DNA of 39,980 bases, taken from positions 1 to 39,980 of IMG/VR virus record IMGVR_UViG_3300031972_001471, one strand, 5' to 3'. The notes below the pieces were generated by a model that was not told the DNA's origin, did not search any database, and saw only the letters and a list, made by a program, of their open reading frames with translations. This document shows positions 1 through 39,980 of this stretch, one piece after another. Both the position numbers and the translations under genes were made by a program. The DNA is from a virus. How positions within the stretch are numbered: position 1 is the first letter of the stretch; each line of letters starts with the position of its first letter.

Positions 1-124
1 AGAGCTGATAGCCTCCTTCAGGCCTTGCCACATGGTGACGTCTTCTTGCCCTTGAAGGATTTGCTGTTCCTCGCGGGTGGAGCGGAAGGAAGGTGTGGGA
101 TTAGCGTGCGGTACAGAGAGCCCT
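1..124. repeat. Window-end overlap, copy 1 (matches 39857-39980)
   Basis: This stretch aligns without gaps to 39857-39980 and differs at seven positions. Read in the gp16-like frame, all seven are third-codon changes that keep the amino acid (Ala, Leu, Gly, Gly, Thr, Pro, Pro). It therefore looks like the same locus from two closely related genomes, joined by an assembler, rather than a packaged terminal repeat, which would normally be identical. Confidence 0.85.
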
Positions 125-633
125 TGAGGGAGCCCGGTAGCCTCAGAGAGAGCTGAAGCGACAGTGCCTGTATTGCCTGTAGGAGTGGGGGGTGTAAACT
201 CCCCATTGAATAGGCGTTCAGCGTTGGCGAGGTGGCCGGACATCTGGTTGCGAACCTTGTCAGCAACTGTACCGGGGGCCCCACCATTGTTTGCATCGGT
301 GCGATTGTATCGACCCACGCCACCTGCGTTGATGGCGGAGTAGACGTCGAGGAGGCCCATGCCGGGCTGGACGCCAGTATCCTTCAGGTACCGGACAACG
401 GCACCGTTCGGGCCCAGCTGGGAAGCCATAGCGTTATTCCAATCAACGCCGTAGCGCTGGGCTTGTGGTTCACCGAATTGGATCAATCCACGGTGTTGCC
501 CCCACTGAGTGGTAGGGCCTGCTTTAGTAGGGTCGAAGGTACCTGCAGTCTCATAGGAGATAGCGGTAGCCAGTACGACGGGGTCAATGCCAAGGGCCTC
601 AGCCGATTGACGAATGCCTTCACGGAGTTCCAT
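1..633 (-). CDS. Internal virion protein gp16-like, N-terminal part with lytic transglycosylase domain (continues across the window edge)
   Basis: The minus-strand frame is open from the ATG at 631-633 to base 1, giving 211 residues, and continues in the same frame at 39856 down to 36827. The joined protein would be about 1220 residues, close to T7 gp16 (1318). The first 110 residues look like a lysozyme-type transglycosylase. AISYETAGTFDP (residues 24-35) carries the likely catalytic Glu28, GLIQFG follows near residue 50, and SAINAGG near residue 98 resembles the AYNAG motif. In T7, gp16 is ejected into the cell envelope, where it opens peptidoglycan and helps form the DNA channel. The start is preceded by AAGGAAACATTC, a good Shine-Dalgarno sequence. 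The gene follows a gp15-like gene, as in T7. Confidence 0.9.
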   Translation of the reverse strand, partial: MELREGIRQSAEALGIDPVVLATAISYETAGTFDPTKAGPTTQWGQHRGLIQFGEPQAQRYGVDWNNAMASQLGPNGAVVRYLKDTGVQPGMGLLDVYSAINAGGVGRYNRTDANNGGAPGTVADKVRNQMSGHLANAERLFNGEFTPPTPTGNTGTVASALSEATGLPQGLSVPHANPTPSFRSTREEQQILQGQEDVTMWQGLKEAISS

Positions 634-638
634 GAATG

Positions 639-660
639 TTTCCTTACTGTGGGGGTTAAA
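639..660 (-). promoter_or_regulatory. Possible phage RNA polymerase promoter upstream of the gp16-like gene
   Basis: Seventeen of 22 positions match the promoter-like sequence found at five other places in the window. The upstream TTTAACCC block and the central CACAGTA are kept. The initiating end reads AAGGAAA instead of AGGATAG, so the site also serves as the ribosome-binding site of the gene that starts at 633. It may be a weak late promoter. Confidence 0.45.
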
Positions 661-666
661 TGAGAA

Positions 667-687
667 GAGGCCCCCGAAGGGGCCCCT
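667..687 (-). terminator. UUCG-capped hairpin after the gp15-like gene
   Basis: On the minus strand GGCCCC and GGGGCC pair around a UUCG tetraloop, followed by UCUUCUCAUUU. It lies between the stop of the gp15-like gene (712) and the promoter-like site at 639-660. It could end transcripts or protect their 3' ends. Confidence 0.65.
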
Positions 688-711
688 GTAAGAGTGTCGA
701 TCTGTACCGCC

Positions 712-3006: not shown

Positions 3007-3035
3007 TGAATGTTCCTTCTAAAGGGGTTGTTGGG

Positions 3036-6384: not shown

Positions 6385-6969
6385 TTAACGGGCAAGGATG
6401 CGGGCGATAGAGACGTTCCCTGTGAGGAGGTTCTTATCGCGCACCCGGCTGTTGGCTTTACGGAACCGCGCGCGGGCCTGATACTCATCTCGTTCGCCGA
6501 AGCTATAGAGGGTTTCAGAGCCAACGGCACCGGCTTGGAAGATGCGGGCGGCGCGGATGGTGATGTACCGGCGGGCAGTTTCGGGTAGGTCCTCGAAGTC
6601 CATGCGCCAGATGATGTCACAGTCGATAGTTGTTGTTGAAGGGAACTCGAAGGTGTGGTTCTCGAGGTCGTAGAGACGGTCCCCGCGAACGATGACCTTA
6701 GAGGATTTGTCCGACGGGTCGCACATGAGGGCGGTATCCGGGACATAGAATACATAAGGAGCGAAGGCTTGCCGCGTCAGCGGGTACTCCTTCTCCAGAT
6801 TGAAGACCCATCCCTCGGATTGAACCTCGCGGGACACGTCATCAAGCACTTGCTCGGCAGTCACCGCGTCAACAACGGTACCACCTTCAAGGGTATTCAC
6901 CGGGCTTTCCCCGATGGTGAAGAGCATGCTGTTAACAGCGCTCAGTTTGGTTGTGATGTTCAGAGACAT
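6385..6969 (-). CDS. Tail tubular protein A (T7 gp11-like, gatekeeper)
   Basis: The product has 194 residues (T7 gp11 has 196). The N-terminus contains LSAVNSMLFTIGESPVNTLE, followed by DVSREVQSEGWVFNLEKEY. This combination is typical of the family (AVN.ML..IGE.PV..L, then a W.FN strand). In T7, twelve copies bind the portal and close the head channel until adsorption. The start at 6969 (MSLNITTKL) is preceded by a GAGGTACCTAT ribosome-binding region. It lies directly downstream of the capsid gene and its terminator, as in T7. Confidence 0.95.
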   Translation of the reverse strand: MSLNITTKLSAVNSMLFTIGESPVNTLEGGTVVDAVTAEQVLDDVSREVQSEGWVFNLEKEYPLTRQAFAPYVFYVPDTALMCDPSDKSSKVIVRGDRLYDLENHTFEFPSTTTIDCDIIWRMDFEDLPETARRYITIRAARIFQAGAVGSETLYSFGERDEYQARARFRKANSRVRDKNLLTGNVSIARILAR

Positions 6970-6979
6970 AGGTACCTCG

Positions 6980-7015
6980 AAAAAAATGGGGCCAGTAGAT
7001 TTCTCTACCAGCCCC
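6980..7015 (-). terminator. Rho-independent terminator after the major capsid gene
   Basis: The minus-strand RNA folds into a 12-bp stem capped by GAAA, with two adjacent G-U wobble pairs that would be mismatches on the opposite strand. AUUUUUUU follows. The wobbles show that it acts on minus-strand transcripts. Its position after the capsid gene matches the T7 late terminator T-phi. Confidence 0.9.
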
Positions 7016-7023
7016 GGTTGGGA

Positions 7024-7983
7024 TTAAGCGAACGCTAGTTCGACAGCACCTTCAGGGCGCAGGATGCCGTGACCAACAGCGAACTTCGACACGATCTGGT
7101 TGCCCAGACGGCGAGGGTCGTAGTCCATGCGAGTGGACAGGTCCAACAGCTTCACTGTACCAACAGCAGACTTGTGCATGACAAGACCGGCGGTGTTGGA
7201 GAAGTCGCCAACGTAGCTGTCGCGGGAACCCGCAGCAACAGTGGATGCAACGACATCAGTCGAAGGCAGGTTGTTCGTCTTCACGATTTCCATGCCTGCA
7301 ACACGAGGGATGAAGCCAGCGGCACGGTCGCCACCATTTGCACTGTAGTCCTTCGAGATCAGCTTGTCGTTGTTGATCAGGTTCCAGTATTGAGCTGGGC
7401 GTATGTACGCAACGCGGTCCATTTCAGGGACGTTCTTCTCGTCCAAGCGCTGGGCAGCGGTTGTCAGAGCAGCAGCCAACTTCTCAGGGTCGTCCCAATC
7501 AGATGCAACAGACTCAGTGATAACGGTACCGCCATCACCTTCGCCGGGGATGTTCGCAACAGTTGTACGGGCAGCCAGAACACCCACTTGAAGGACGTGC
7601 TTGTCCCAAGTCTGAGCCAGCACACGGCCAGTCTCAGTCGAGTAGTGCGAGCGAACGTCGTAGTGGTTCTTGGCTTCGTCGATGTCGGCAATGAATGTCG
7701 GAGCGATCAACAGGTCGTCGATCACGATGACTTTCTCATTGTGCTTGATAGAGCCGCCGAGAATTTCGTTACCGGGAGTGTGGTAGTACGCAGACGCGCG
7801 ACCCATGACAGGGAACTGTGCGGACTTACCGTTGGAGATTTGGCGCACTTGTGTGCGGCCCATGGTGACGTTCTCAGCTTCGAAGATCGTCAGAACTTCG
7901 CCAGAGAACAATTTCAGGAAGAGGGCGTCGCTATCACCGGCGGCGAGAGCTTGGCCCAAACGGGATGGATTTGTATCAGCCAT
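7024..7983 (-). CDS. Major capsid protein (T7 gp10A-like)
   Basis: The product has 319 residues when started at MADTNPSRLGQA. This start has AAGGT nine bases upstream. An in-frame GTG further up (8040) would add 19 residues without Shine-Dalgarno support. Segments such as LKLFSGEVLTIFEAENVT, TSIKHNEK-type loops and ADIDEAKNHYDVRS near residue 95 fit the T7-type HK97-fold capsid proteins, which run about 320-345 residues. The protein forms the icosahedral shell on the scaffold encoded at 8853-9689. Unusually, the scaffold is not directly upstream: a lysis cassette and a tRNA-like gene lie between them. A strong terminator follows. Confidence 0.93.
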   Translation of the reverse strand: MADTNPSRLGQALAAGDSDALFLKLFSGEVLTIFEAENVTMGRTQVRQISNGKSAQFPVMGRASAYYHTPGNEILGGSIKHNEKVIVIDDLLIAPTFIADIDEAKNHYDVRSHYSTETGRVLAQTWDKHVLQVGVLAARTTVANIPGEGDGGTVITESVASDWDDPEKLAAALTTAAQRLDEKNVPEMDRVAYIRPAQYWNLINNDKLISKDYSANGGDRAAGFIPRVAGMEIVKTNNLPSTDVVASTVAAGSRDSYVGDFSNTAGLVMHKSAVGTVKLLDLSTRMDYDPRRLGNQIVSKFAVGHGILRPEGAVELAFA

Positions 7984-8148: not shown

Positions 8149-8229
8149 TGGACCCTCGAGCAGGAGTTGAACCTGCATAACCTCCGTACCACGTGGTTGA
8201 GGTGCTCTAACCTATTGAGCTATCGAGGG
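8149..8229 (-). tRNA. tRNA-like gene with encoded CCA and an enlarged anticodon loop
   Basis: The minus strand forms a 7-bp acceptor stem (CCCTCGA with TCGAGGG), a D arm (GCTC with GAGC around a 9-base loop), a perfect 5-bp T arm (GCAGG with CCTGC around TTCAACT), then T and an encoded CCA. The anticodon arm is odd. The region that should be 17 bases is 22: CCTC pairs with GAGG around a 14-base loop containing the palindrome ACCACGTGGT. No anticodon can be assigned with confidence. The 5' end overlaps the last 18 bases of the o-spanin gene. It may be a decayed tRNA, an integration-site relic or an unusual functional RNA. Confidence 0.65.
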
Positions 8230-21339: not shown

Positions 21340-23820
21340 TCAGGCAAAGCAGAACGAACTCTCGAGGACCGCAGTGCGATCAAGCGTACCGGAGGCTGGC
21401 ACCTCCTTGAGTTTCTCCCGTTGCTTAGGAGATAGTTGCTCCATGATCTCGGAGCGGAAGTTGTCAATGACTTCCACTGAGCTATACATTTCGACCAGTG
21501 TCTCACGTAGTAGGGTGAAGAACCGGGGAGTGTCAGCTGCGTGAACACCGAAGCTGTCATGAACAAGTGCGAAGTGTTTCATCCCTTCCTCAGCGGCGCG
21601 CACAACCGACAGGCGGAGGTGGGTACCATCAAGGGAGTGGACGAAGTTCGGGCTGATGCCCTGAGCTTGCGCCCGCTTGTCCACGGTGGGGAGGTCAGAC
21701 ACCATCATCATCACGACGCGGCTGCCATTGATCATGGTCTCGACCCGCTGCCGCTTCAGATCACGGTAGGCTTGTAAGACAGGGAACCCATCAGGTGTCG
21801 TCCAGTGAACCGGAAGACCTTCCTTAGCGACGAGCGTTGCGGTGTCCTTCAGCCACTCCATAGCCTCGGCAGCTTTGACAACCACCCGATCAACAGCTTC
21901 AGCGATCACCTTAGCCATGTAGAGAGAGGCTTGGAAACCATCAGCTTCGAACGGCCATGAACCTTCACCCTTCTGGTAGGCCCGATAAGCTGGCCGTAAG
22001 GTGTCGGTCATGATCTGGTCACGGAACCCGTACTCGCGGGAGCCATAGCCATAGGTCATTGTCGGGCGCTTGAAGCAACCGCGACCGGGCTTGAAGGTCA
22101 GCCACTGCAGAGCGATGTCCCGCTTGGCTGGGTCACCATCCTGAGAAGCATCTGCTTCCATCTGTTCGTATACCCGCTCCATCACCAGTGAGTAGATGTC
22201 AGCTGGCTTGTCGGCTGGTGTGAGGTTAACGGCTGCACCGCCTATCTCATCTTTAAGAGCCATGCTGAAATGCTGAATACCAGAGCAAGACCCATCCAGA
22301 GCAACGGCAAGGCGCGACGGATAACCGACCCCATGCTCGCACCACCCCGCCCACTCGTTACAAGCCGCAAGGAATTGGAAGGGGCTGTCAGCTTCGGTCC
22401 ACCATAGATCATCGAATGGGCCACGCGCGGCTGCGATAATACGCTCTTCGTTTTCGTAGACCCATGCAACGCGGTCTTCGAGGGGGGCTTTGTCGATCTT
22501 ACCGAACGCCCCGCAGTTGGCGAGGTGGATGGCAAGGAAGGGTGCGCTCTCTTCGTCGAGTGGTTTTGGTTCTGCAAAGTGTAACAATCCTTTCATGTAA
22601 TCGGGGCCCTGAGGGTTAAACTGGGGGACAGCATAGACCCGGCCACGAAAGTCCATCTGATAGGGGAAGTACAGGCGCTCGAAGAGTTTGAACTTGGTCG
22701 CGGTGTTCAAGGCATATGCGAACTGTGTCCGGGAGGACATGAGCTCGCGGTTCTCGGTGTATATCTTGGCGGCTTGGATACGCCAGTTCTTCCGAGCTTC
22801 CTCATTCTCTTCGATGTCATGCGGCTTAGGAGGCAGCTCGATATCGTACTTGGGTGGAATGTTTCCCATAGTGGAAGAGTTGTCCCAAATGTTAGAGATC
22901 ACGTCGAGGATGAAGAGGTTCACCGACCAAGCTGCGCGCTGGGCTGTGTTCAGGGCGGCATAGACCATCGGCATATCGGTGTTCTCAAGCTCTTCACGGT
23001 ACCCTTTGTTGCGGCTCTTCACCATGTCCAGTGGATGGACGTAGCGTGTGAGGTAGCCACCACCGCGCGGGGTCTCCCAGTCCTGCGGCTCATAAACCAT
23101 CGGCTCATAGACTGGCTGCAAGAGTTCAGCAGCAGTGTTCCGATCTTCGATCCACTTCCGTGTCTCCTCAGTTGGCTTGAGGTAGACCACGGTTTTGTTC
23201 TTACCTTCCTTGTCGTGTGCCACCTCGACCAGACCCACCTTCTCAATGATGATGTCGATGAGTTTGGTACCGAGGTGCTGGCGGTGAACCTGAGGCCACT
23301 CATCCCACTCCTGTTCGAAGCGGTTGAGGAGGAAGTTAACGGTGGTCCGCTTGTTACGTAGGTCGTCACGCTTGCGTGCTTCACCCTTCAGGTAGTTGTA
23401 GAGACCGCGATCTTCCTTGCGTATCTCAGCATAACGGACTTCGTCCTCGATAGACCCCGCGATCTGGAGGGCTACGCTCTGCATGCGAGCTGCCTTAGAG
23501 ACACCGCGAAGGACATTCTTCAGGGCCAGATAGGCAGCCACCCGAGCATCAACCTGCTTGAGGTATTTGATGGCGGCATGACGACGACCGGGACGCCCTG
23601 TCTCAGCGTCACGAAGGAACTCTCGGATACCCTCTGCAACAATCTCAGTACAACGGGATATGATGGTGTTGCCATAGGCTGTCTCGTCTTCAGCACCCCG
23701 TTGCACATCCTTCTCAAGGCGTGAACGGTACCGATCAATACCCATCTGTGTCATCCCTCTCTCCAACTCAATCTGTTGAGTAGCTAAGTTGTCATGAGGT
23801 GTGATAGTAAGATAGTCCAT
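21340..23820 (-). CDS. T7-type single-subunit RNA polymerase
   Basis: The 826-residue product (T7 RNAP has 883) has all catalytic landmarks. Asp509 lies in VALDGSCSGIQHFS, Lys584 and Tyr592 in GCFKRPTMTYGYGSREYGF, and Asp755 in ALVHDSFGVH. QMDFRGRVYAVPQFNPQG and the terminal FCFA, equivalent to the T7 FAFA foot, are also present. It transcribes the phage genome from its own promoters, which here are probably the TTTAACCCACACAGTAGGAT sites. AGAGAGAGAAACAT precedes the start at 23820. The shorter length compared with T7 lies mainly in the N-terminal domain that reads the upstream promoter. Confidence 0.98.
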   Translation of the reverse strand: MDYLTITPHDNLATQQIELERGMTQMGIDRYRSRLEKDVQRGAEDETAYGNTIISRCTEIVAEGIREFLRDAETGRPGRRHAAIKYLKQVDARVAAYLALKNVLRGVSKAARMQSVALQIAGSIEDEVRYAEIRKEDRGLYNYLKGEARKRDDLRNKRTTVNFLLNRFEQEWDEWPQVHRQHLGTKLIDIIIEKVGLVEVAHDKEGKNKTVVYLKPTEETRKWIEDRNTAAELLQPVYEPMVYEPQDWETPRGGGYLTRYVHPLDMVKSRNKGYREELENTDMPMVYAALNTAQRAAWSVNLFILDVISNIWDNSSTMGNIPPKYDIELPPKPHDIEENEEARKNWRIQAAKIYTENRELMSSRTQFAYALNTATKFKLFERLYFPYQMDFRGRVYAVPQFNPQGPDYMKGLLHFAEPKPLDEESAPFLAIHLANCGAFGKIDKAPLEDRVAWVYENEERIIAAARGPFDDLWWTEADSPFQFLAACNEWAGWCEHGVGYPSRLAVALDGSCSGIQHFSMALKDEIGGAAVNLTPADKPADIYSLVMERVYEQMEADASQDGDPAKRDIALQWLTFKPGRGCFKRPTMTYGYGSREYGFRDQIMTDTLRPAYRAYQKGEGSWPFEADGFQASLYMAKVIAEAVDRVVVKAAEAMEWLKDTATLVAKEGLPVHWTTPDGFPVLQAYRDLKRQRVETMINGSRVVMMMVSDLPTVDKRAQAQGISPNFVHSLDGTHLRLSVVRAAEEGMKHFALVHDSFGVHAADTPRFFTLLRETLVEMYSSVEVIDNFRSEIMEQLSPKQREKLKEVPASGTLDRTAVLESSFCFA

Positions 23821-24668: not shown

Positions 24669-25119
24669 CGCTCACCTCCCGGAACTTGTAGAAGCATCCT
24701 AAACACCGTTCTATCTCAGAGGCCGCACCACATCCACCACAGGAGGTACCTTCCCCTACAATCGGGCCGGGGTTATTCACGGCATCGACGAGGACGAAGT
24801 CATCCGACATGAAGTCAAAGTAGCCCCGTTCGATATCTTCCCGCGTGGCTTCAGTCCCGCAGGGCCACCTGAACAGATCGTCTGGGTGATCTTCAGAGTT
24901 GGTACCCTTCCCCGGACTTGAACCGGGACGACTTGCGTCAAAGCATTTTGAATGCTTCGTGTCTACCATTCCACCAGAAGGGCTCTCGTCCTTCTCATAC
25001 GTGGTCAGAACGCGGGTTGCAAGGGTGTGTTGAGGGTGACCGGCGGGCCACTCGGTCAGTACCATACGGCACATGTGTTCGATGGTGTCTAGCTGAGCTT
25101 GAAGGATTTGCTGTTTCAT
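24661..25119 (-). CDS. Open reading frame of 152 codons that spans a tRNA-Leu gene
   Basis: The frame starts at an ATG with AAGGACACTTCC upstream and runs without a stop through the tRNA gene at 24900-24983. Residues 1-45 (QILQAQLDTIEHMCRMVLTE) look like a normal helical protein. Residues 46-75 are simply the translated tRNA (SGGMVDTKHSKCFDASRPGSS). Residues 76-152 look like a second protein segment with two CxxC-type pairs (CGGCG, RCLGCF), possibly zinc-binding. Either the tRNA landed in frame in a real gene, or two shorter genes flank it and the frame is accidental. A start within the second half (MSDDFVLVDAV) is possible. Confidence 0.45.
   Translation of the reverse strand: MKQQILQAQLDTIEHMCRMVLTEWPAGHPQHTLATRVLTTYEKDESPSGGMVDTKHSKCFDASRPGSSPGKGTNSEDHPDDLFRWPCGTEATREDIERGYFDFMSDDFVLVDAVNNPGPIVGEGTSCGGCGAASEIERCLGCFYKFREVSGD
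24900..24983 (-). tRNA. tRNA-Leu (anticodon CAA)
   Basis: The 84-base gene folds fully. The acceptor stem pairs GCCCTTC with GAAGGGT (first pair G-U), the D stem is GTG with CAC, and the anticodon stem pairs AAGCA with TGCTT around TTCAAAA, giving anticodon CAA. The long variable arm (TGACGCAAGTCG) is typical of class II tRNAs, and the T arm pairs CCCGG with CCGGG around TTCAAGT. A73 and an encoded CCA follow. It would read UUG codons. Its position 660 bases from the integrase gene also makes it a candidate attachment site. Confidence 0.95.
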
Positions 25120-25648: not shown

Positions 25649-26671
25649 TCAGTTTGCAGTCAGCGCTTCTAGCGCGTCATCAAAAGCGTTCGGCGCGAGG
25701 TGCGCGTAACGCATGGTGGTTTGGATGGTCGCATGTCCCATCCACTTCTGAACCACCGCAAGGGACACCCCAGCCTGCACCAATCGGGAGCAGCAAGTGT
25801 GCCTGAAGCTGTGGAACACGGCCTCGTCATCGCCGGGCAGCTTGGCCCATGCCTTCCATGCGCGGAGGCGGCGCGATACTGAGCTGGAGTTGACCGTTGG
25901 AGGAAACAAAAGCTCCCAGTCCCGGACATCTGAGCGGCGTCTGAGTACGATCTCCCTAGCGCGGGGTGTTAGGGGTACCGAACGGGGCTCATCGCCCTTG
26001 GTGACCCACGTTGAGAGCTTCCCCGTCGAGGGGTTCCAGTCGCGCGGTGTGATCTTGATCAGCTCACCGAACCGGAAGCCGGTGTCGAGCGCGAGGATGA
26101 ACAGGTCGAGGAAGTCCCGGTCGTCACTGAAGAACTGCTCCATTGACGCGATCTCGTCCTCACTAAACCAGCGGATGCGGCCCTTGTATTCCTTCTTCTG
26201 CTTCACCTTGAAGTCGTGGCTCAGAGCGCCCTGCTCCTTGGCGATACGTAGCATCACCGATAGAGCGGCGATCTTCCTGTTGATGGTGCCCGTCTTCACC
26301 TCCTCAGCCCAGCCTGAGACGATCTGATCGATCACCTGACGGTTCAACTTAGCAGTTGGGAAGTCCGGCCCCAACGCATCAACCCAAGCGTGGGCGTTAC
26401 GCTCCGAGGAGGCTTCGCTTTTCTTGCCCCGCCAGTGGTGCATCACGCAGTAGTGAGCTAGTTGGGTTATGGTACTGACCCCGGTCTTCTTGACGGGGCC
26501 TGATCGGTTCTGCGAGGGGGCGCAAGGCATGATACCCGCCATGAGTGAGGCCTTAAAGTCGGTCTCAATCTGGTGGGCTTCCTCGAAGGTAGCGACAGTG
26601 ACGCGAGGGGCGCGAACCCCTTTCCATGTCACGTCTACTTGGAACTTAGTTCCCTTGTTGCGGATTGCCAT
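25649..26671 (-). CDS. int: Tyrosine recombinase (phage integrase)
   Basis: The product has 340 residues. An N-terminal arm-binding region and a SAM-like core-binding domain (about residues 65-150) are followed by the catalytic domain. Its active site is complete: Arg200 (DTGFRFGELI), Lys225 (TWVTKGDE), His287 and Arg290 (HSFRHTCCS), His313 (KWMGHA) and Tyr322 (MRYAHL). Such enzymes insert phage DNA at a short attachment site, often in a tRNA gene. A full tRNA-Leu lies 660 bases downstream. AAAGGAGGAACAC precedes the start. An integrase beside a T7-type RNA polymerase is uncommon and suggests a temperate or formerly temperate phage. Confidence 0.95.
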   Translation of the reverse strand: MAIRNKGTKFQVDVTWKGVRAPRVTVATFEEAHQIETDFKASLMAGIMPCAPSQNRSGPVKKTGVSTITQLAHYCVMHHWRGKKSEASSERNAHAWVDALGPDFPTAKLNRQVIDQIVSGWAEEVKTGTINRKIAALSVMLRIAKEQGALSHDFKVKQKKEYKGRIRWFSEDEIASMEQFFSDDRDFLDLFILALDTGFRFGELIKITPRDWNPSTGKLSTWVTKGDEPRSVPLTPRAREIVLRRRSDVRDWELLFPPTVNSSSVSRRLRAWKAWAKLPGDDEAVFHSFRHTCCSRLVQAGVSLAVVQKWMGHATIQTTMRYAHLAPNAFDDALEALTAN

Positions 26672-28268: not shown

Positions 28269-28328
28269 GCTCATCAGCGGCCAGCCACCCGGCGACCGGA
28301 CGGTGCCCTTGCGGGTTCACCGTTTCGC
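28269..28328 (-). ncRNA. Type II hammerhead ribozyme, diverged copy
   Basis: The minus strand has GAAA (28323-28326), then stem III ACGGUG with CACCGU enclosing CCC-GCAA-GGG with a GNRA loop. UC follows, with predicted cleavage after 28299. Stem I starts CGGUCG and ends UGGCCG (six pairs including G-U), and CUGAUGAG is at 28277-28270. Stem II is only two pairs (GC with GC). Its 5' end lies inside the last codons of the gene at 28317-28493, whose stop is in the ribozyme. Confidence 0.75.
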
Positions 28329-28493
28329 TTTCTCTTCAAGTTTCCAGATGGGGTGTTCTGACCAGTCATCGTGTGGGTCATCGGTAAGGTCATGGACGAT
28401 GGTACCAATAAGAATGACCACCCAAACCGTTATGATCACTTCCGCGACGATATCCCAGAAAGCCCGTCCATAATAAAAGTGACGGTATCTCAT
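28317..28493 (-). CDS. Small single-pass membrane protein
   Basis: The product has 58 residues from MRYRHFYYGRAF, which has GAGGTGAGCGC upstream. One hydrophobic helix (residues 13-33, WDIVAEVIITVWVVILIGTIV) is followed by an acidic and then basic tail (DDPHDDWSEHPIWKLEEKAKR). The ATG overlaps the stop of the interrupted frame at 28490. The last four codons form the 5' edge of a hammerhead ribozyme, so cleavage of the transcript would leave the coding part intact. Function is unknown. Confidence 0.55.
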   Translation of the reverse strand: MRYRHFYYGRAFWDIVAEVIITVWVVILIGTIVHDLTDDPHDDWSEHPIWKLEEKAKR

Positions 28494-28667
28494 GCGCTCA
28501 CCTCGACCGGCCAACAGTTTGTGCGTTCGTTGATGCAGTGATATTCCTGTTCAACCGGCATCTGTTTTTGCACCGCTTGGTACTGTTCGGCTAAGATGAT
28601 CACAGCAGCACCAAGAGCAGTGCCAGTGATAAGAGAGAGAGAGAGCTAAAATGAATGTCGTTTGCAT
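28490..28667 (-). pseudogene. Small membrane protein gene interrupted in a CT dinucleotide tract
   Basis: An ATG with AAGGATAAGCAGG upstream starts MQTTFILALSLS and then loses frame in (CT)6. A second frame continues LITGTALGAAVIILAEQYQ and runs to VEVSA with a TGA overlapping the next ATG. Adding one CT unit would join them into a 59-residue single-pass membrane protein. This is either repeat-length variation in the phage population, an assembly error, or a true decay event. Confidence 0.5.
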
Positions 28668-28690
28668 CCTGCTTATCCTTTCGTTGTTCG

Positions 28691-28754
28691 CAGTCTCATC
28701 AGGCGGTGCATGCGAAGCCCCACGACGGCCCCGTTAAGGGAACCGTTTCGACAG
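28691..28754 (-). ncRNA. Type II hammerhead ribozyme, copy 1
   Basis: Minus-strand order is stem II strand CUGUC, GAAA, stem III ACGG with CCGU (outer) and CCC with GGG (inner), UC with predicted cleavage between 28724 and 28723, stem I GUGG.GC with GC.CCGC around UUCGCAU, then CUGAUGAG (28702-28695) and stem II strand GACUG. All conserved core bases are present. It lies between the stop of the gene at 28763 and the start at 28667. Confidence 0.85.
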
Positions 28755-28762
28755 TGGAAGGG

Positions 28763-29215
28763 TTAAGGCGAGAGGTCTTCGTCAGTGGCATAGACGGGCT
28801 GCTCTCGGGGTAGGTAGTGGACCGCATCAAACTCTTGACGACTATCCGCCTTATCGCGCCTGAATAGAACCTGATGGGAACCGCGAAGGACATAGTCATC
28901 AGGAACGCTGAACTTGAAGAGCTTGCAGCCCTTCTCTTCCATCGCTTGGCGACCTTCTGGGCAGCTAAACCAATCGTCTAACTGTTCGAGGCTCTCGAAA
29001 CCAAAGTGAAAACCCTTAAGGCCAGCGGTTATTACGTGTTTGTGTGCGTCTGTGCCTTCTTCCGTATGGTTGAATAAGGTTGGCCCGTCATATGCGGAAG
29101 AGAACCCTAATGATGTAGCGACTTTGTCGTAAGCTAAGCTCGGTTGCGTACCATGATCACCCCCGAAAGGGCCATCACGCTCATCTGTTGTTTTCTCAAA
29201 TCTGAAAATGATCAT
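28763..29215 (-). CDS. Uncharacterised 150-residue early protein
   Basis: The product is soluble and acidic: MIIFRFEKTTDERDGPFGGD, HVITAGLKGFHFGFESLEQLDDWFSC, LFKFSVPDDYVLRGSHQVLFRRD. Alternating strands and helices suggest one compact alpha/beta domain. No family is recognised. AGGGATAAACGAAG precedes the start. It is flanked on both sides by type II hammerhead ribozymes, and its TAA is the first base block of the downstream ribozyme repeat. Confidence 0.6.
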   Translation of the reverse strand: MIIFRFEKTTDERDGPFGGDHGTQPSLAYDKVATSLGFSSAYDGPTLFNHTEEGTDAHKHVITAGLKGFHFGFESLEQLDDWFSCPEGRQAMEEKGCKLFKFSVPDDYVLRGSHQVLFRRDKADSRQEFDAVHYLPREQPVYATDEDLSP

Positions 29216-29244
29216 CTTCGTTTATCCCTCATCATACTTGTTGG

Positions 29245-29309
29245 CAGTCTCATCAGCAGGGCCATGCCAAGGCCCCGGACGGTGCCCGTTAAGGGAACCG
29301 TTTCGACAG
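29245..29309 (-). ncRNA. Type II hammerhead ribozyme, copy 2
   Basis: The core is complete: GAAA, stem III ACGGU with ACCGU plus CCC with GGG around UUAAC, then UC with cleavage predicted between 29278 and 29277. Stem I is seven pairs, CGGGGCC with GGCCCUG around UUGGCAU, and CUGAUGAG is at 29256-29249. Stem II joins CUGUC to GACUG with one U-U mismatch. It occupies the gap between the HhH gene (stop at 29318) and the next start (29215). Confidence 0.88.
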
Positions 29310-29317
29310 TGGAAGGG

Positions 29318-29923
29318 TTAAGCCATAGCGACAGCATCAAAGTGATAGGCGCTGACCTGATCACCAGTCTTGAGGGGCGACCCGCGCCGACCGGCGACAT
29401 AGTCACACCAGCGGTTCCACCAGTGTTCAGAACCACCAGTTTCATCACATAGGTTGACGTAGTCCAGAACCTTGCGCCGCGCCGTCTCAGGCTTCAGCTT
29501 GGGGCCGATCTTGACCGCCGCGTCACTCATGCCCAGCGCCTTCAAGTTGTGAGTATCGAGGCAGGCTGTTTCGCCGCCGATCATCTGGACCACGAAGGCC
29601 GCCTTGACCATGCCCAGTCCCGGCACCTGCATGAAGTGCTGGATTAGGTCAGCCTTACGGTCAGCGCTTTGGGGCCGCTTCAGGGTGTCATGCATGACCC
29701 GCCACAGATAACCCTTGTTCTCTTGAGTGAATGACCACCCGGCCCGCTTAGAGCCAAACAGAAAGGGGCTTTCGCTTCCCCGCGCGCTGATATCCTTGCG
29801 CTGGGCGATCACCTGTTGCAGTGGTTGACGGATAGTCAACAGTGTGAACTCGATCACATCAGCCAGCCCTGAAGGTGTTGCTAGGGCGTGTTCTGCGATC
29901 TTGTGAGCATCGCGGTCATACAT
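29318..29923 (-). CDS. HhH-GPD-like protein, possible DNA glycosylase
   Basis: The product has 201 residues. The segment QHFMQVPGLGMVKAAFVVQM (residues 95-114) is a helix-hairpin-helix, and GGETACLDTHN follows with Asp123 in the DTH context used by endonuclease III and other HhH-GPD glycosylases. The catalytic Lys of bifunctional enzymes is shifted by one position (GLGMVK), so activity is uncertain. C-terminal cysteines do not form the usual iron-sulphur pattern. It may recognise modified or damaged bases. AAAGGAGAATGAACG precedes the start. Ribozymes lie on both sides. Confidence 0.6.
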   Translation of the reverse strand: MYDRDAHKIAEHALATPSGLADVIEFTLLTIRQPLQQVIAQRKDISARGSESPFLFGSKRAGWSFTQENKGYLWRVMHDTLKRPQSADRKADLIQHFMQVPGLGMVKAAFVVQMIGGETACLDTHNLKALGMSDAAVKIGPKLKPETARRKVLDYVNLCDETGGSEHWWNRWCDYVAGRRGSPLKTGDQVSAYHFDAVAMA

Positions 29924-29940
29924 CGTTCATTCTCCTTTGG

Positions 29941-30004
29941 CAGTCTCATCAGTAACGCCATGCCAAGGCGCTAGACGGCCCCGTAAAGGGAACCGTTTCG
30001 ACAG
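29941..30004 (-). ncRNA. Type II hammerhead ribozyme, copy 3
   Basis: GAAA is followed by stem III ACGG with CCGU plus CCC with GGG around UUUAC, then UC with cleavage predicted between 29974 and 29973. Stem I is seven pairs, UAGCGCC with GGCGUUA, around the same loop UUGGCAU as copy 2. CUGAUGAG is at 29952-29945. Stem I differs from copies 1 and 2 at several positions on both strands, yet pairing is kept. Confidence 0.9.
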
Positions 30005-30012
30005 TGGAAGGG

Positions 30013-30396
30013 TTAAGCCGCAACCTCTTCACGTTCGGCCAGCAGAGCGGACACGCTGAAGTGACGACCAGTCATTGGTGTTTCGGTGACGTGAACCCAG
30101 TTTGTATCCACACCATGCTTGAGCACTGCGTCGCAGATTGCTTGCTGTACTGCGAAGTAAGCGCGCTCTGCCTTGTGCTCTTCACAAGTCAGTTCCAGCT
30201 CAAAGCAATGTTCGGCGAACAGGTGCCCCCTGAAGGTATCCTTTTTAGCGTCGCCGTCATCCATCCACCAGCCATCCTTGCTGGATGTGGTGCAACCGCC
30301 ACAATGACGCGACGCGGCGGTAATTATGTCAGCTTCAAAGGCATCGTTTTGCTTGGCATAGCCAATCTGAAAGGTGAACTTGATCTGGTTGCGCAT
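30013..30396 (-). CDS. Uncharacterised 127-residue early protein
   Basis: The product starts MRNQIKFTFQIGYAKQND, with AGAGGAACACAAC upstream; the longer frame only adds the intergenic repeat. Residues about 25-35 hold SRHCGGC. The rest mixes aromatic and charged residues (KDGWWMDDGD, HLFAEHCFELELTCEEHKAERAYF). His and Cys residues could bind a metal. No family is recognised. Its TAA is embedded in the conserved block that starts ribozyme copy 3. Confidence 0.55.
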   Translation of the reverse strand: MRNQIKFTFQIGYAKQNDAFEADIITAASRHCGGCTTSSKDGWWMDDGDAKKDTFRGHLFAEHCFELELTCEEHKAERAYFAVQQAICDAVLKHGVDTNWVHVTETPMTGRHFSVSALLAEREEVAA

Positions 30397-30410
30397 GTTG
30401 TGTTCCTCTA

Positions 30411-30441
30411 AGGTAAGTGTTTCGACAGTGGAAGGGTTTAG
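30411..30441 (-). repeat. Remnant of the ribozyme repeat
   Basis: The block TAAACCCTTCCACTGTCGAA matches the 5' flank of ribozyme copies 1-3 up to GAAAC, but stem III, stem I and the CUGAUGA core are missing. It lies between the 39-residue and 127-residue genes, where a ribozyme would be expected. It looks like a deletion remnant. Confidence 0.65.
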
Positions 30442-30557
30442 CGACAGGCTTTGTAAGCAAGCCATACAGCGGCCACCACCCAAGCTACCCCGTAAAGCCA
30501 AAGCATATCGGGTGCTGTAAGGTCGATTGAAGGTGCGTTGACGGTGATCGTTTTCAT
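30438..30557 (-). CDS. 39-residue membrane peptide
   Basis: ATG with AGGACGCTTAACA upstream. The product is MKTITVNAPSIDLTAPDML followed by one hydrophobic helix (WLYGVAWVVAAVWLAY) and a basic end KACR. The good ribosome-binding site, clean stop within the conserved repeat block, and fit into the gap between neighbours all support it. Short membrane peptides are common among phage early genes. Function is unknown. Confidence 0.55.
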   Translation of the reverse strand: MKTITVNAPSIDLTAPDMLWLYGVAWVVAAVWLAYKACR

Positions 30558-30568
30558 TGTTAAGCGTC

Positions 30569-30754
30569 CTAGTGAGGTGAGGGAAGGTCGGGGTTAGCAG
30601 CGTTGATCAGATGAAAGGCTTTCTTGTTCTCTTTAAGCATCGACTTGATAGTGCCCTTCTTAAGGCCTGCACTTTCATCGTCCTGCAAATCATCAATCAG
30701 TACATGGGCAGTCATCAGGGCTTCCCAAACGGCTTCTAGTGCAGCATCATTCAT
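30569..30754 (-). CDS. Small acidic early protein behind a type III hammerhead
   Basis: The product has 61 residues and is helical and acidic (DAALEAVWEALMTAHVLIDDLQDDESAG, then a basic stretch KKGTIKSMLKENKKAFHLI). The ribosome-binding site AAGGAGGG lies in the predicted stem II loop of the ribozyme at 30753-30808, and the AUG is partly within stem III. Folding and cleavage could therefore control its translation. No family is recognised. Confidence 0.6.
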   Translation of the reverse strand: MNDAALEAVWEALMTAHVLIDDLQDDESAGLKKGTIKSMLKENKKAFHLINAANPDLPSPH

Positions 30755-30808
30755 TGTTTCGGCCCTCCTTAGGCCATCATCAGTGACGCGGTATCAGCGC
30801 CAGACAAT
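30753..30808 (-). ncRNA. Type III hammerhead ribozyme overlapping a start codon
   Basis: Minus-strand order is stem III AUUGU, C (cleavage predicted between 30803 and 30802), stem I UGGCGC with GCGUCA (six pairs) around UGAUACC, CUGAUGA (30783-30777), stem II GGCC with GGCC around UAAGGAG, GAAA, then stem III ACAAU. A single U sits between the core and stem II, a departure from the usual G-C closing pair that may lower activity. It resembles the type II copies in its CATCAG-type flank. Confidence 0.7.
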
Positions 30809-31200
30809 TCTGGAGGCGGCTCTGAGTGGCCATTGTAGACGCCCCTATCAAGGCGACCCTACCCCCTGCCCTTATCGGTCTCCCCACCTATCGTGTCGGT
30901 GGTTCGTGAACTGACAGTCCCAAGCTCTCTATGCCGTGGCCCTTGGTGGCCGTGATCGTCGTTTCGATGCTCATAACCTTTCATAACCGGAACAGTTCCA
31001 CAAGAGGAAATGTTAGAAAAACACAGATAAATCGTATAAGTGATTGAAAACTAACGAAACTTTGTACCTCTCATCACCCTCCCATCACCTTAGATGAACC
31101 GTTACAAGCCCGTGATGGTGTCCCTGATGGTGATCGTAATGGTCTATGAATGTGACCTATAGCGCGTGGGTGTGATGGTTGTCGTGATGGTATCCCTGAT

Positions 31201-31260
31201 GGTGCATGTGAAGGTGTATGTGAAGGTGTATGTGAAGGTGTATGTGAAGGTGTATGTGAA
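31201..31260. repeat. Five tandem 12-base repeats
   Basis: The unit GGTGTATGTGAA is repeated five times head to tail, the first copy with one change (GGTGCATGTGAA). On the minus strand the unit reads as TTCACATACACC. Any open frame here (for example Ser-His-Thr-Pro repeats) is a by-product of the repeat. Similar short repeat arrays lie near the ends of other T7-like genomes. Confidence 0.9.
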
Positions 31261-31342
31261 GGTTTCCTGAGGGTGAACATGTGTTTCCTCACAGGAATAA
31301 CAAAACAACTGATACACCGAAGCGAGAGAGCGTAAGTGTTAT

Positions 31343-31372
31343 ATTATAACAATAAGACCAATGATGGGTCGA
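31343..31372 (-). promoter_or_regulatory. Candidate host sigma-70-type early promoter
   Basis: A perfect TATAAT (31348-31343) is preceded by 18 bases and TCGACC (31372-31367), a four-of-six match to TTGACA. It lies in the gene-poor region upstream of the early genes, where a T7-like phage needs host-recognised promoters before its own polymerase is made. The TATAAT is part of the palindrome TGTTATAATATAACA. Confidence 0.4.
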
Positions 31373-36826: not shown

Positions 36827-39800
36827 TTATTCAGAGAACCGTGGAAGGTTCTGACCGAGGAGGTGATAGGCGTTGCGAATACCCATGGCGTTGTTGAACG
36901 GAACAAGAGACTTTGCAGCGTTCAAGTCTTGCTGACTGAAGTCATAGTCATCACGCAGAAGCGCTGCTGACATGCCCTGCCCGGCCCGTGCCGTCTTGGA
37001 GATCAAGTCGAACGTAGGGTTCCCGAACAATGTCTCGGAAGCCAGACCAGTGGTTCGGCCATAAGAGAACACAGGTTCATATCCCAGCCCCCAGACAAGC
37101 GTGTTGTCCACGATGCTTGGGGCGATGGTTGCAAACCCAGCCCGTTGGAAGGCAGCCCGGCCCAGCGCCGCCGGTTCAAGGCGATCTTGGAGGTACTTCT
37201 TCCGATCATCACGGGCGATTGAGTTTACGTGCGTCTGAGCGATGTAGCTCATCCCACCAAACAGGATACCCATCGACCACATCATGAATGTTTCCATGTC
37301 GCGGTGATGAAGCCCACTCAATGTCTGCTTGGTCCATGCCGCCACCATAAAGGAGCGGAACTGGATTAACGTCCGACCTAAGTCAGTTGTCATCCATTGA
37401 GACATTTGCCCGATATCATTCTCTTGGATGATCTTCCGGGACCACCTATCAATCGCGTTGATGAACGTCGAGGCAGCTTCGCTATCGGCCCAGTCTTCGA
37501 GGTTGAGCCGTTTGACGTTACGCCCTAGCATGCCCTTCTGGGTATCCACATGGTCCACCATCTGGGCCCGGATACGGGTAGCCATCTCATCACTCACACC
37601 CATCGCTGCGAGGCGGGACTGAGAGAAGCCCTTACCTGAGCCAAGGGCGTCATTCATCCAGCGCTGAACAGCTGCCCGTCCGGCCATCCGTTGGAGTGCC
37701 ATGTTGACAGGGGCCATCAAGCTGAGGTCTGCGGTGATGTGCTTGGCTTTCTGAAGGGCGTTATCCACCCGACCGAACATTGCACCTTCGTAGATGCCGT
37801 AGTCATCCATCCGGTTAGACGTCGTGTGACGAAGCCGGTCAGTACCGATGCCCCAGATGCTCTCGATCTCATCAAGCAGTTCATCATCCATGCGACCGTT
37901 GGAGGCACGCTTGTAGATGTTCCGCAAGGCGGGGACGTGTTGCAGCGTAGCTTTGAAGCCAGCTGCCCCGAGGATGTTCCCGATCTCGGCGATCTGTGCG
38001 AAGCCTACTTGGTTCATCACTCGGATGAAGTTGTAGTCCCGCAGGAAGCGCAAGCTCTCGGACATGTTACCGCGCTTGTTGAGGGGGATACCCATCACGG
38101 CCTTGTAGAGAGTGTCGAGCTTCCCGATCTCGCTATCGAGCTGGTGAGGCTTCATGTTGAATTGACCTGCCGTCTCCCGGATGTGGCCGAGGATGGTCTC
38201 GAACGAGGGGGTGCCCCCATCTATCTCACCATCAAGACGTGCCACACGGAAATTACTCAGGGCATCTTCCATGAAACCAGCGCCGGTCATCTGACGGGTA
38301 TAGAGGGTCATCAACCGCTCAGCATTATTGTCGAGGAAGTCCTCAACGCCGAACGTATGGCGTACCTGATTGGCGTCGATGAAGGTGTCCCGATAGGTTT
38401 CATCAAGGCGCAGCCGGTGCTTGGACCGAGCAATGGCCCCTTCAGTTCCCGATGTGGGTTTCTTCACAGCCGAGACGATCTGTGTGATGCGTTCAGCTGA
38501 TACGTCACCACTCTCAATCAGCATCCTCTCCAACAGTTCCGTCTGATCATCACTGAACACACGGCTGAGCTGGACGTCTTGGTACTTCTGAGAGCGGATG
38601 GAGCGGAGATATGACTGGGCGATGACCAGAGTGTCCTCATAATCAAGGTGAGGGGAACCCCGGCCCACGGCCTTACCGAGCATCCGCGTAACGGCACCTT
38701 CACCAAACCGGGTGATCATGTCGTCAAGCTTGCGGTGGTTGAATACACGCATGAGATACTCAGAGTTCTCGCCCACATCATCAAAGCCCCGAAGACCTTT
38801 GTCCTTGGCAAACCGCAGGAGATCAGCCTGAGCTGACCGCATGGCATCAGCCACCTTATTGATGTTGACGTCGTCAGTATGCATCCCGGCCTGACGCCGG
38901 ACAGCCTTACCGACTTGCTCGAAGAAGTCCTCACGATGTGCGCCACGCTTCCACATAGGGATACCGGCATCCTTAACCCACGCCCGAAATGCAGGCTCAA
39001 CTGTCCGATAGAACTCAGACATCCGGACCTTCATCGCGCGGTTCACCTCTTCAGAGGCGGAGCGGGTTAGAACAGCACCGTTGGCGTTGGCTACACCGTC
39101 CTCAGCGAGGGCGTTGGCGAGGCGTCGGACGACGGGGTGTTCAGATTGCTTCAGCGTCCCTACCATATCGATACGGGCACCTCCCATGGCTGATCGAGGG
39201 GCGTCCTCGGCAGCGGCCAGTTGGCGTTGAGCTGCTGTAAGGTTGGGGTCCTCAGGGGCTACACGCGCAGCGCCCAGTGACTGAGTGTCGCCGGGAGTAC
39301 GGGTAACCTCGCGTTGAAGATCACGGGCAACCGTTTCCAGCTCTCGATCCATACGGGCAGGAACAAAGGCACCTAGAGCGCCACCTACGACGAGCCCTGT
39401 AGCACCCGCAAGGAGGACTGAACGGGCACCGCGACGGGGGTCCTGAGAGGCGATGTACCCTTCAACACCAGCGTTAGCCGCACCAGCAGATAGACCCATG
39501 CGCACAGCGCGTTGACCACGGGAGAGCTTGTTAGCCAGCATGGCTGGTGCCGCGATACCATCAGTCATTACCATGGCACCGATAGCGACAGGGTCAAACA
39601 CAGCTGCACCAATCCGCATTGTGGTTCCCCAGCCGCCCAGTTGGGCCAGCTTCTGATCACTTTCCACCATCTCAGCGGCACGATCTCGGATAGCCCGAGC
39701 ATGGGCTTCAGACACTGCATCATCAAAGATGTCATGGTAGGCGACAGGGATGCCGTCAGTCAGCTCGCCCCAGAGCTCCTCATTATAGCGGAACTCAGTG

Positions 39801-39980
39801 TCAGGCTTGAACTCATCAGCACCCATCTGGGCCAGCATGTAGGAGCCTGCCCATTCAGAGCTGATGGCCTCCTTTAGACCTTGCCACATGGTGACGTCTT
39901 CTTGGCCTTGAAGGATTTGCTGTTCCTCGCGGGTGGAGCGGAAGGAAGGGGTAGGATTAGCGTGGGGTACAGAGAGCCCT
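36827..39980 (-). CDS. Internal virion protein gp16-like, C-terminal part (start lies at 633 across the window edge)
   Basis: The frame is open from 39980 to the stop at 36827 and is the continuation of 1-633. The internal ATG at 39889 is not the true start, because reading upstream gives PSFRSTREEQQILQGQEDV in both window ends. The segment holds long amphipathic helices, hydrophobic Ala/Gly-rich stretches (about 39400-39600), and a C-terminus with ALLRDDYDFSQQDLNAAKSLVPFNNAMGIRN, a type of ending common in gp16 proteins. In T7 this part forms the conduit through the inner membrane and helps pull DNA in. Confidence 0.9.
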   Translation of the reverse strand, partial: GLSVPHANPTPSFRSTREEQQILQGQEDVTMWQGLKEAISSEWAGSYMLAQMGADEFKPDTEFRYNEELWGELTDGIPVAYHDIFDDAVSEAHARAIRDRAAEMVESDQKLAQLGGWGTTMRIGAAVFDPVAIGAMVMTDGIAAPAMLANKLSRGQRAVRMGLSAGAANAGVEGYIASQDPRRGARSVLLAGATGLVVGGALGAFVPARMDRELETVARDLQREVTRTPGDTQSLGAARVAPEDPNLTAAQRQLAAAEDAPRSAMGGARIDMVGTLKQSEHPVVRRLANALAEDGVANANGAVLTRSASEEVNRAMKVRMSEFYRTVEPAFRAWVKDAGIPMWKRGAHREDFFEQVGKAVRRQAGMHTDDVNINKVADAMRSAQADLLRFAKDKGLRGFDDVGENSEYLMRVFNHRKLDDMITRFGEGAVTRMLGKAVGRGSPHLDYEDTLVIAQSYLRSIRSQKYQDVQLSRVFSDDQTELLERMLIESGDVSAERITQIVSAVKKPTSGTEGAIARSKHRLRLDETYRDTFIDANQVRHTFGVEDFLDNNAERLMTLYTRQMTGAGFMEDALSNFRVARLDGEIDGGTPSFETILGHIRETAGQFNMKPHQLDSEIGKLDTLYKAVMGIPLNKRGNMSESLRFLRDYNFIRVMNQVGFAQIAEIGNILGAAGFKATLQHVPALRNIYKRASNGRMDDELLDEIESIWGIGTDRLRHTTSNRMDDYGIYEGAMFGRVDNALQKAKHITADLSLMAPVNMALQRMAGRAAVQRWMNDALGSGKGFSQSRLAAMGVSDEMATRIRAQMVDHVDTQKGMLGRNVKRLNLEDWADSEAASTFINAIDRWSRKIIQENDIGQMSQWMTTDLGRTLIQFRSFMVAAWTKQTLSGLHHRDMETFMMWSMGILFGGMSYIAQTHVNSIARDDRKKYLQDRLEPAALGRAAFQRAGFATIAPSIVDNTLVWGLGYEPVFSYGRTTGLASETLFGNPTFDLISKTARAGQGMSAALLRDDYDFSQQDLNAAKSLVPFNNAMGIRNAYHLLGQNLPRFSE
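39857..39980. repeat. Window-end overlap, copy 2 (matches 1-124)
   Basis: Seven differences from bases 1-124, all synonymous in the gp16-like frame. Joining the copies closes the gene and the genome with a unit length of about 39,856 bases. Confidence 0.85.

What the first reader, a model, noticed from the sequence alone, without database searches (positions are those of the whole stretch)
28269..30808. A family of hammerhead ribozymes fills the gaps between the early genes of a T7-like phage
On the minus strand, five sites have the full hammerhead core: CUGAUGA, GAAA, an A-U closing pair in stem III and C at the cleavage site. Four have type II order (28269-28328, 28691-28754, 29245-29309, 29941-30004) and one has type III order (30753-30808). 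A sixth gap holds a remnant (30411-30441). Each lies between the stop of one small gene and the start of the next. The hammerhead core is established knowledge. Its repeated use as gene spacers in a podovirus is, to my knowledge, unusual. If active, the early transcript would cut itself into separate mRNAs, a job done by host RNase III in T7. That last step is inference.
Basis: partly seen in the sequence, partly recalled or inferred. Interest (0 to 1): 0.96.

Follow-up and report, generated by a model that had tools for sequence, protein, structure and literature searches.

The report
Self-cutting RNA arrays in T7-like phages
Between the early genes of this T7-like virus sit five RNA sequences with the complete, conserved design of self-cutting hammerhead ribozymes; similar arrays sit in the same place in many other T7-like phages, including cultured viruses of the abundant ocean bacterium Pelagibacter, and they probably cut the early transcript into separate messages, though the cutting itself has not been tested.

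Summary
All five hammerheads (four type II, one type III) are at the stated places with intact catalytic cores. Chance predicts about 0.18 per window, both strands together. Rfam's Hammerhead_II model ranks the four type II copies; one passes its curated cut-off. In eight homologous copies the stems and a loop I/3'-tail pseudoknot covary: 10 pairs changed on both sides, 0 of 500 shuffles as high. The 'remnant' is an exact 18-nt copy of the family's 5' end.

The arrangement is recurrent. In 80 T7-like polymerase loci from IMG/VR, 40 hammerheads lie upstream of the polymerase gene on its strand and none opposite (0.4 and 0.2 expected). Cultured pelagiphages (HTVC019P, 031P, 109P, 021P) and roseophage CRP-125 carry them, missed by Rfam cut-offs where run. 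Position follows topology: type III precedes the first early gene; types I and II directly follow stop codons.

Best reading: ribozyme processing of the host-transcribed early message, the role T7 gives to RNase III. Clusters in prophages and this processing idea were published in 2011 (PMC3088659). The T7-like early-region arrays and the topology rule appear new in the literature searched. Cleavage is untested.

The parts
30753..30808 (-). Type III hammerhead ahead of the first early gene; predicted cleavage after C30803; stem III AUUGU/ACAAU, stem I UGGCG/CGUCA, stem II GGCC/GGCC with the Shine-Dalgarno in its loop; one extra U after A9
   Evidence: Descriptor; same design at L005:698-754 in the phage with the nearest polymerase (52% identity), with stem changes
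29941..30004 (-). Type II hammerhead between early genes C and D; predicted cleavage after C29974; loop I UUGGCA pairs with 3' tail UGCCAA
   Evidence: Rfam 36.2 bits; descriptor; covariation; minimal sequence folds to the hammerhead as its energy minimum
29245..29309 (-). Type II hammerhead between early genes D and E; predicted cleavage after C29278; same pseudoknot
   Evidence: Rfam 29.0 bits
28691..28754 (-). Type II hammerhead between early gene E and the next small gene; predicted cleavage after C28724; pseudoknot UUCGCA/UGCGAA, changed on both sides relative to the other copies
   Evidence: Rfam 23.2 bits
28269..28328 (-). Type II hammerhead of a more distant sequence, with a 2-bp stem II; predicted cleavage after C28299; overlaps the stop codon of the upstream gene
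   Evidence: Rfam 46.7 bits, above the cut-off of 37
30411..30441 (-). Remnant: exact 18-nt copy of the 5' end of the type II family (30419-30436) in the gap before gene C, without stem I or CUGAUGA
   Evidence: Pattern search, 4 exact copies in the window, 0.02 expected
30569..30754 (-). First early gene, 61 aa; its start codon overlaps stem III of the type III hammerhead
   Evidence: ORF with AGGAGG 9 nt before ATG; no family match
30438..30557 (-). Early gene, 39 aa, one membrane-type stretch by eye
   Evidence: ORF with AGGA
30013..30396 (-). Early gene C, 127 aa; homologues in L009, L016, L010
29318..29923 (-). Early gene D, 201 aa; homologues in L009 (79%), L010 (65%), L011-L015 (about 43%)
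28763..29215 (-). Early gene E, 150 aa, phrog_1106 (function unknown)
   Evidence: PHROGs 4e-23
28317..28493 (-). Early gene, 58 aa; its stop codon lies in stem III of the 28269 hammerhead
31343..31372 (-). Candidate host (sigma-70 type) early promoter, TCGACC-18-TATAAT with TG, about 540 bases ahead of the first ribozyme
   Evidence: Consensus match only, count at chance level
25649..26671 (-). Tyrosine integrase
   Evidence: PHROGs 3.5e-52, Pfam 4.4e-24
21340..23820 (-). T7-like RNA polymerase, 826 aa, downstream of the array
   Evidence: phrog_414, E 1e-262

Best explanation
The five elements are genuine hammerhead ribozymes kept by selection in the early operon of an integrase-carrying T7-like phage. 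When host RNA polymerase transcribes the early region as one long RNA, each hammerhead cuts itself just after a stop codon and just ahead of the next ribosome-binding site, giving gene-size mRNAs. The type III copy trims the leader from the first gene; the type II copies separate the later genes. Each cut leaves a 2',3'-cyclic phosphate on the upstream RNA and a 5'-hydroxyl on the downstream RNA. In a type II cut the upstream message keeps the stem III hairpin at its 3' end and the downstream message begins with the stem I hairpin, which should slow decay. This is the job that host RNase III does for T7. Shown here: sequence, covariation, core integrity, strand, position, recurrence. Inferred: cleavage in the cell, end protection, benefit to the phage.
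For: Intact cores and all stems in five places, about 0.18 expected by chance. Rfam Hammerhead_II matches. Covariation in eight homologous copies: 96.9% of cells paired, 10 pairs and 25 cells changed on both sides, 0 of 500 shuffles as high, slid controls 29-46% paired. Recurrence on the polymerase strand, upstream of the polymerase gene: 40 same strand against 0 opposite in 80 loci; 100 against 0 in 70 further, partly overlapping loci; cultured phages. Core integrity: 63 intact against 3 weak one-substitution candidates. Placement: Shine-Dalgarno plus ATG within 60 nt in 53 of 63 (16% of random sites), gene stop at the 5' edge in 38 of 63 (16%). Related clustered phage hammerheads cleave in vitro and in E. 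coli (PMC3088659). T7 itself has none.
Against: No cleavage or RNA-end data exist for these sequences. Alone, the minimal 28691, 28269 and 30753 sequences have alternative folds 1-3 kcal/mol better than the core-open fold (the pseudoknot is not scored), and pieces with flanks do not fold better than shuffles, except the L009 one. The nearest named T7-like phages (BB8, YIMV22061, LUZ100) and several pelagiphages have no hammerhead, so it is not essential to this life style. Recent repeat spread inside the window family explains part of the sequence likeness. The early promoter is only a consensus match.
Confidence: 0.77

Rival explanations
1. Translation control or insulation: cleavage mainly serves to free or standardise the ribosome-binding site of the downstream gene, as the engineered RiboJ insulator does. 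In the type III copy the Shine-Dalgarno lies in loop II and the start codon is partly paired in stem III until the RNA is cut.
For: Shine-Dalgarno in loop II and AUG in stem III in the window and in L005. Start codons follow the ribozyme closely, 17-39 nt for most type I and II copies.
Against: In other genomes the type III copy lies 11-31 nt ahead of the start codon and does not include it. Types I and II also keep a tight link to the upstream stop codon, which translation control alone does not need.
Confidence: 0.12
2. Recombination linkers: the ribozyme-bearing repeats are mainly homologous spacers by which small early genes are gained and lost, and cleavage is incidental.
For: Four exact copies of an 18-nt block in the window. 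L016 has an extra gene plus hammerhead between genes C and D relative to the window and L009 (after its second type II copy the next gene begins MYDRD, as gene D does, sequence). A partial copy remains at 30411.
Against: Stem I and the pseudoknot have diverged with compensating changes while the core stayed intact. Arrays in other genomes mix types I, II and III with unlike sequences, so they give little homology for recombination.
Confidence: 0.07
3. Circular RNA or ligation: pairs of hammerheads release gene units that are then ligated into circles.
For: Hammerheads can ligate (general knowledge); multiple copies flank single genes.
Against: No sign of it was found here; the 2011 study of clustered phage hammerheads looked for spliced or circular products and saw none (PMC3088659).
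Confidence: 0.02
4. Chance or relic motifs without present activity.
For: Only one of five passes the Rfam cut-off; one remnant is present.
Against: Chance expectation, covariation, strand and position bias, intact cores.
Confidence: 0.02

Closest known systems
Clustered hammerheads in prophages (Perreault et al. 2011, PMC3088659), type II Rfam RF02276
   Same: Type II fold with loop I/3'-tail pseudoknot; several copies flanking single genes or short gene blocks; processing of phage transcripts was proposed there
   Different: That paper does not name podoviruses or Pelagibacter phages. Here the arrays sit in the early region ahead of a T7-like RNA polymerase gene, mix types I, II and III by position, and lie between stop codon and ribosome-binding site
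RNase III processing sites of T7 early mRNA
   Same: Position: one site between the early promoters and the first gene, others between early genes (general knowledge of T7; gene map)
   Different: T7 uses a host enzyme on long hairpins and has no hammerhead; here the RNA carries its own catalytic core
RiboJ-type ribozyme insulators of synthetic biology
   Same: Hammerhead in the 5' untranslated region ahead of a ribosome-binding site (general knowledge)
   Different: Engineered, single copy, not placed after the stop codon of an upstream gene
Integrase-carrying T7-like phages (LUZ100, BB8, pelagiphage HTVC019P group)
   Same: T7-like polymerase with an integrase upstream and many small early genes
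   Different: LUZ100 and BB8 have no hammerhead; HTVC019P has

Membership tests
Hammerhead ribozyme, type II (RF02276) | Conserved core CUGANGA, GAAA, UH cleavage site in type II order | tested here: met
   Four copies
Hammerhead ribozyme, type II (RF02276) | Three stems kept by compensating changes | tested here: met
   Eight homologous copies, 96.9% of cells paired, 10 pairs with changes on both sides
Hammerhead ribozyme, type II (RF02276) | Pseudoknot between loop I and the 3' tail | tested here: met
   91.7% of cells paired in the eight copies, two pairs changed on both sides; about 3 pairs in the 28269 copy by eye
Hammerhead ribozyme, type II (RF02276) | Score above the Rfam cut-off (37 bits) | tested here: inconclusive
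   46.7 for one copy; 36.2, 29.0 and 23.2 for the others
Hammerhead ribozyme, type II (RF02276) | Self-cleavage after C17 | not testable with these tools
   Needs an in vitro assay
Hammerhead ribozyme, type III | Core and stems in type III order | tested here: met
   30753-30808 and the matching element in L005; one extra U after A9
Hammerhead ribozyme, type III | Match to an Rfam hammerhead model | tested here: not met
   No hammerhead family match at 30753-30808 up to E = 5. A database threshold, not a structural criterion; design and relatives support it
Autographiviridae (T7-like phages) | Single-subunit T7-type RNA polymerase and T7-type gene set | tested here: met
   phrog_414 1e-262, T7-type replication, tail, internal virion and terminase proteins
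RNase III-type processing of early mRNA | Cutting by host RNase III at long hairpins | not tested
   Analogy of position and outcome only; not claimed as membership

The most novel reading that the evidence does not exclude
The phages use the three hammerhead permutations as a position code. Type III stands only where the upstream piece is a disposable leader, because it hands both hairpins (stems I and II) to the 5' end of the first mRNA. Types I and II stand after stop codons, because they leave one or two hairpins on the 3' end of the upstream mRNA (type II also gives one to the 5' end of the next). Topology would thus be selected by which RNA end needs protection.
Probability: 0.35. Interest if true: 0.85.

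Novelty: new variant of a known kind. Interest (0 to 1): 0.78.

Why it matters
What hammerheads do in phages has been open since clusters were described in 2011. A regular array, in a fixed place and order, in the early operon of cultured T7-like phages makes that question directly testable. It also points to a protein-free counterpart of T7 RNase III processing in phages of abundant ocean bacteria. The link between ribozyme topology and gene position, if causal, would give a functional reason why all three permutations occur in nature. It also shows that Rfam cut-offs miss most of these elements.

Tried and rejected
Whole-region blastn against named phages: no match. A 91-base ribozyme query against phages: only short chance-like matches. 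Hammerheads in the nearest named T7-like phages BB8, YIMV22061 and LUZ100: none. Energy folding with flanks as a test: not informative, z-scores near 0 for most pieces. The idea that the conserved 5' flank CCCTTCC masks the downstream Shine-Dalgarno before cleavage: short complementarity exists, but folding gave no consistent support; dropped. Promoter scan: one plausible early promoter, count not above chance. Search for the repeated L010 element elsewhere: only its own contig. No paper in the library holds hammerhead with Autographiviridae; the only one with pelagiphage is a general essay on virus evolution.

Full report
What was checked. The window is a 39,980-base IMG/VR virus record. A descriptor demanding the core and all three stems found 18 hits in 100 Markov shuffles of the window over both strands, about 0.18 per window, against five real ones within 2.6 kb on one strand. 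Rfam's Hammerhead_II model scores 46.7, 36.2, 29.0 and 23.2 bits for the four type II copies (cut-off 37) and gives nothing for the type III copy. The remnant at 30411-30441 is an exact 18-nt copy of the family's 5' end.

The type III copy is not between two genes: it stands ahead of the first early gene, with that gene's Shine-Dalgarno in loop II and its start codon touching stem III; L005, whose polymerase is the nearest found with an upstream region (52% identity), has the same design. The 28269 copy overlaps the stop codon of the gene before it. The type III core carries an extra U after A9, as in L005 and L273; natural hammerheads with an extra nucleotide there are known (from memory: the chrysanthemum chlorotic mottle viroid ribozyme).

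Evidence of selection. Three window copies align with five from related contigs L009 and L016. On a structure with stems I, II, III and the loop I/tail pseudoknot, 96.9% of cells pair; 10 of 24 pairs and 25 cells are changed on both sides; no shuffle of 500 reached any measure; partners slid by 1-3 columns pair in only 29-46% of cells. The pseudoknot covaries: UUGGCA/UGCCAA in two window copies, UUCGCA/UGCGAA in the third. Among 55 upstream regions, nearly all of T7-like phages, 63 cores are intact and only 3 weak candidates with one core substitution turned up (stem thresholds for the two counts differ slightly, and in a closely similar set 59 of 63 intact ones pass thresholds close to the stricter ones).

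The phage. T7-like RNA polymerase, ssDNA-binding protein, primase/helicase, DNA polymerase, exonuclease, head-tail adaptor, tail, internal virion and terminase proteins, plus a tyrosine integrase. The early region runs from a candidate promoter near 31,350 through the ribozyme array to the integrase and polymerase.

Recurrence. T7-like polymerase genes were present in eight records that carry a hammerhead locus, and where scanned the hammerheads lie on the polymerase strand 2.6-6 kb upstream, except in G061, where the fetched stretch showed none. A sample not chosen for hammerheads, 80 T7-like polymerase loci, has 40 hammerheads upstream on the polymerase strand, none on the other strand and 3 downstream (expected 0.4, 0.2 and 1.6). 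Of its 34 loci with more than 3 kb upstream, 13 have at least one. Seventy loci close to pelagiphage polymerases have 100 against 0, and 35 of 44 with more than 1.4 kb upstream carry one (a few loci are shared with the first sample and some are near-duplicates). Cultured phages: HTVC019P (type III 972-1028, type I 2947-3009), HTVC031P (III, II, I), HTVC109P (II, I, II), HTVC021P (III), CRP-125 (III at 38169-38225, ahead of gp1 if the map is closed). T7, LUZ100, BB8, YIMV22061, HTVC105P, 119P, 120P, 134P and 200P gave none (for the last five only the first 8-9 kb were read). Rfam cut-offs find none of the pelagiphage copies. On a quick polymerase tree of 56 rows the trait needs at least six changes, but some rows were chosen for having hammerheads and some long branches are unsure.

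Placement rule. Of 63 hammerheads in 25 genomes or contigs, 53 have an ATG with Shine-Dalgarno within 60 nt downstream and 38 have a gene stop at their 5' edge, against 16% each at random positions. The types differ: types I and II directly follow stop codons in most cases; type III is first in 15 of 15 arrays that have one, with no gene stop close ahead of it in 14 of 16. In the pelagiphage-like set, 0 of 14 distinct type III and 47 of 59 distinct type I/II sequences follow a stop (Fisher p = 2.6e-8; related sequences are not independent), and no type I or II precedes a type III. By the geometry of the three permutations (established knowledge), type III gives both hairpins to the downstream RNA, type I leaves both on the upstream RNA, type II leaves one on each. 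That fits a rule in which the leader is discarded and mRNA ends are capped by hairpins. Common descent of a first-position type III is an alternative for part of the pattern.

Interpretation. The simplest account is self-processing of the long early transcript made by host RNA polymerase into single-gene mRNAs, the outcome that RNase III gives T7. Translation gating is a real possibility for the type III copy of the window and L005. Gene-cassette exchange at the repeats probably happens too: L016 has an extra gene and ribozyme between C and D. None of this has been tested by experiment.

Prior knowledge. Perreault et al. 2011 (PMC3088659) described type II hammerheads, the pseudoknot and clustered phage hammerheads, showed cleavage of some clusters in vitro and in E. 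coli, and suggested processing of phage transcripts. Searches of the open-access library found no paper with hammerhead and Autographiviridae, and nothing relevant with pelagiphage; subscription papers are not covered.

Noticed in passing
L010:5923-5985, 6613-6680, 6950-7010, 7205-7265: In a related T7-like phage with the same genes C and D, the gaps hold a different repeated element of about 65 nt (GCGGATTGCCAAGAAGTGCGGCCCTAAGGGGCTGCATCACTCG), also set between stop codon and Shine-Dalgarno. No Rfam match, and a pattern search found it only in this contig. It may be another processing element.
   Followed up: partly
window 28551-28667 (minus): The small early gene after the 28691 ribozyme runs through a CTCTCTCTCTCT tract and stops after 38 aa; a second frame after the tract stays open up to the next gene's start. 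A slippage tract or a sequencing error.
   Followed up: no
window 24900-24983 (minus): tRNA-Leu (CAA) between integrase and polymerase genes, a likely attachment site; LUZ100 also has a tRNA-Leu next to its integrase and YIMV22061 one near its polymerase.
   Followed up: no
window 8149-8229 (minus): A second tRNA with an unclear anticodon in the structural-gene region.
   Followed up: no
window 31074-31310 (minus): Tandem short repeats (CACATACACCTT and CCATCA-type units) between the candidate early promoter and the first ribozyme, perhaps the terminal-repeat or packaging region.
   Followed up: no
window 1-711 and 36827-39889: The large internal virion protein lacks about 220 N-terminal residues at the record's end (PHROGs match starts at 223 of 1235), which suggests that the record was cut open inside this gene.
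   Followed up: no
L053 (7 type II), L127 (1 type III then 8 type II), L188: Long hammerhead arrays in records where no T7-like polymerase was found (L053, L127) and in a bacterial contig (L188), again with type III first in L127 and L188.
   Followed up: no
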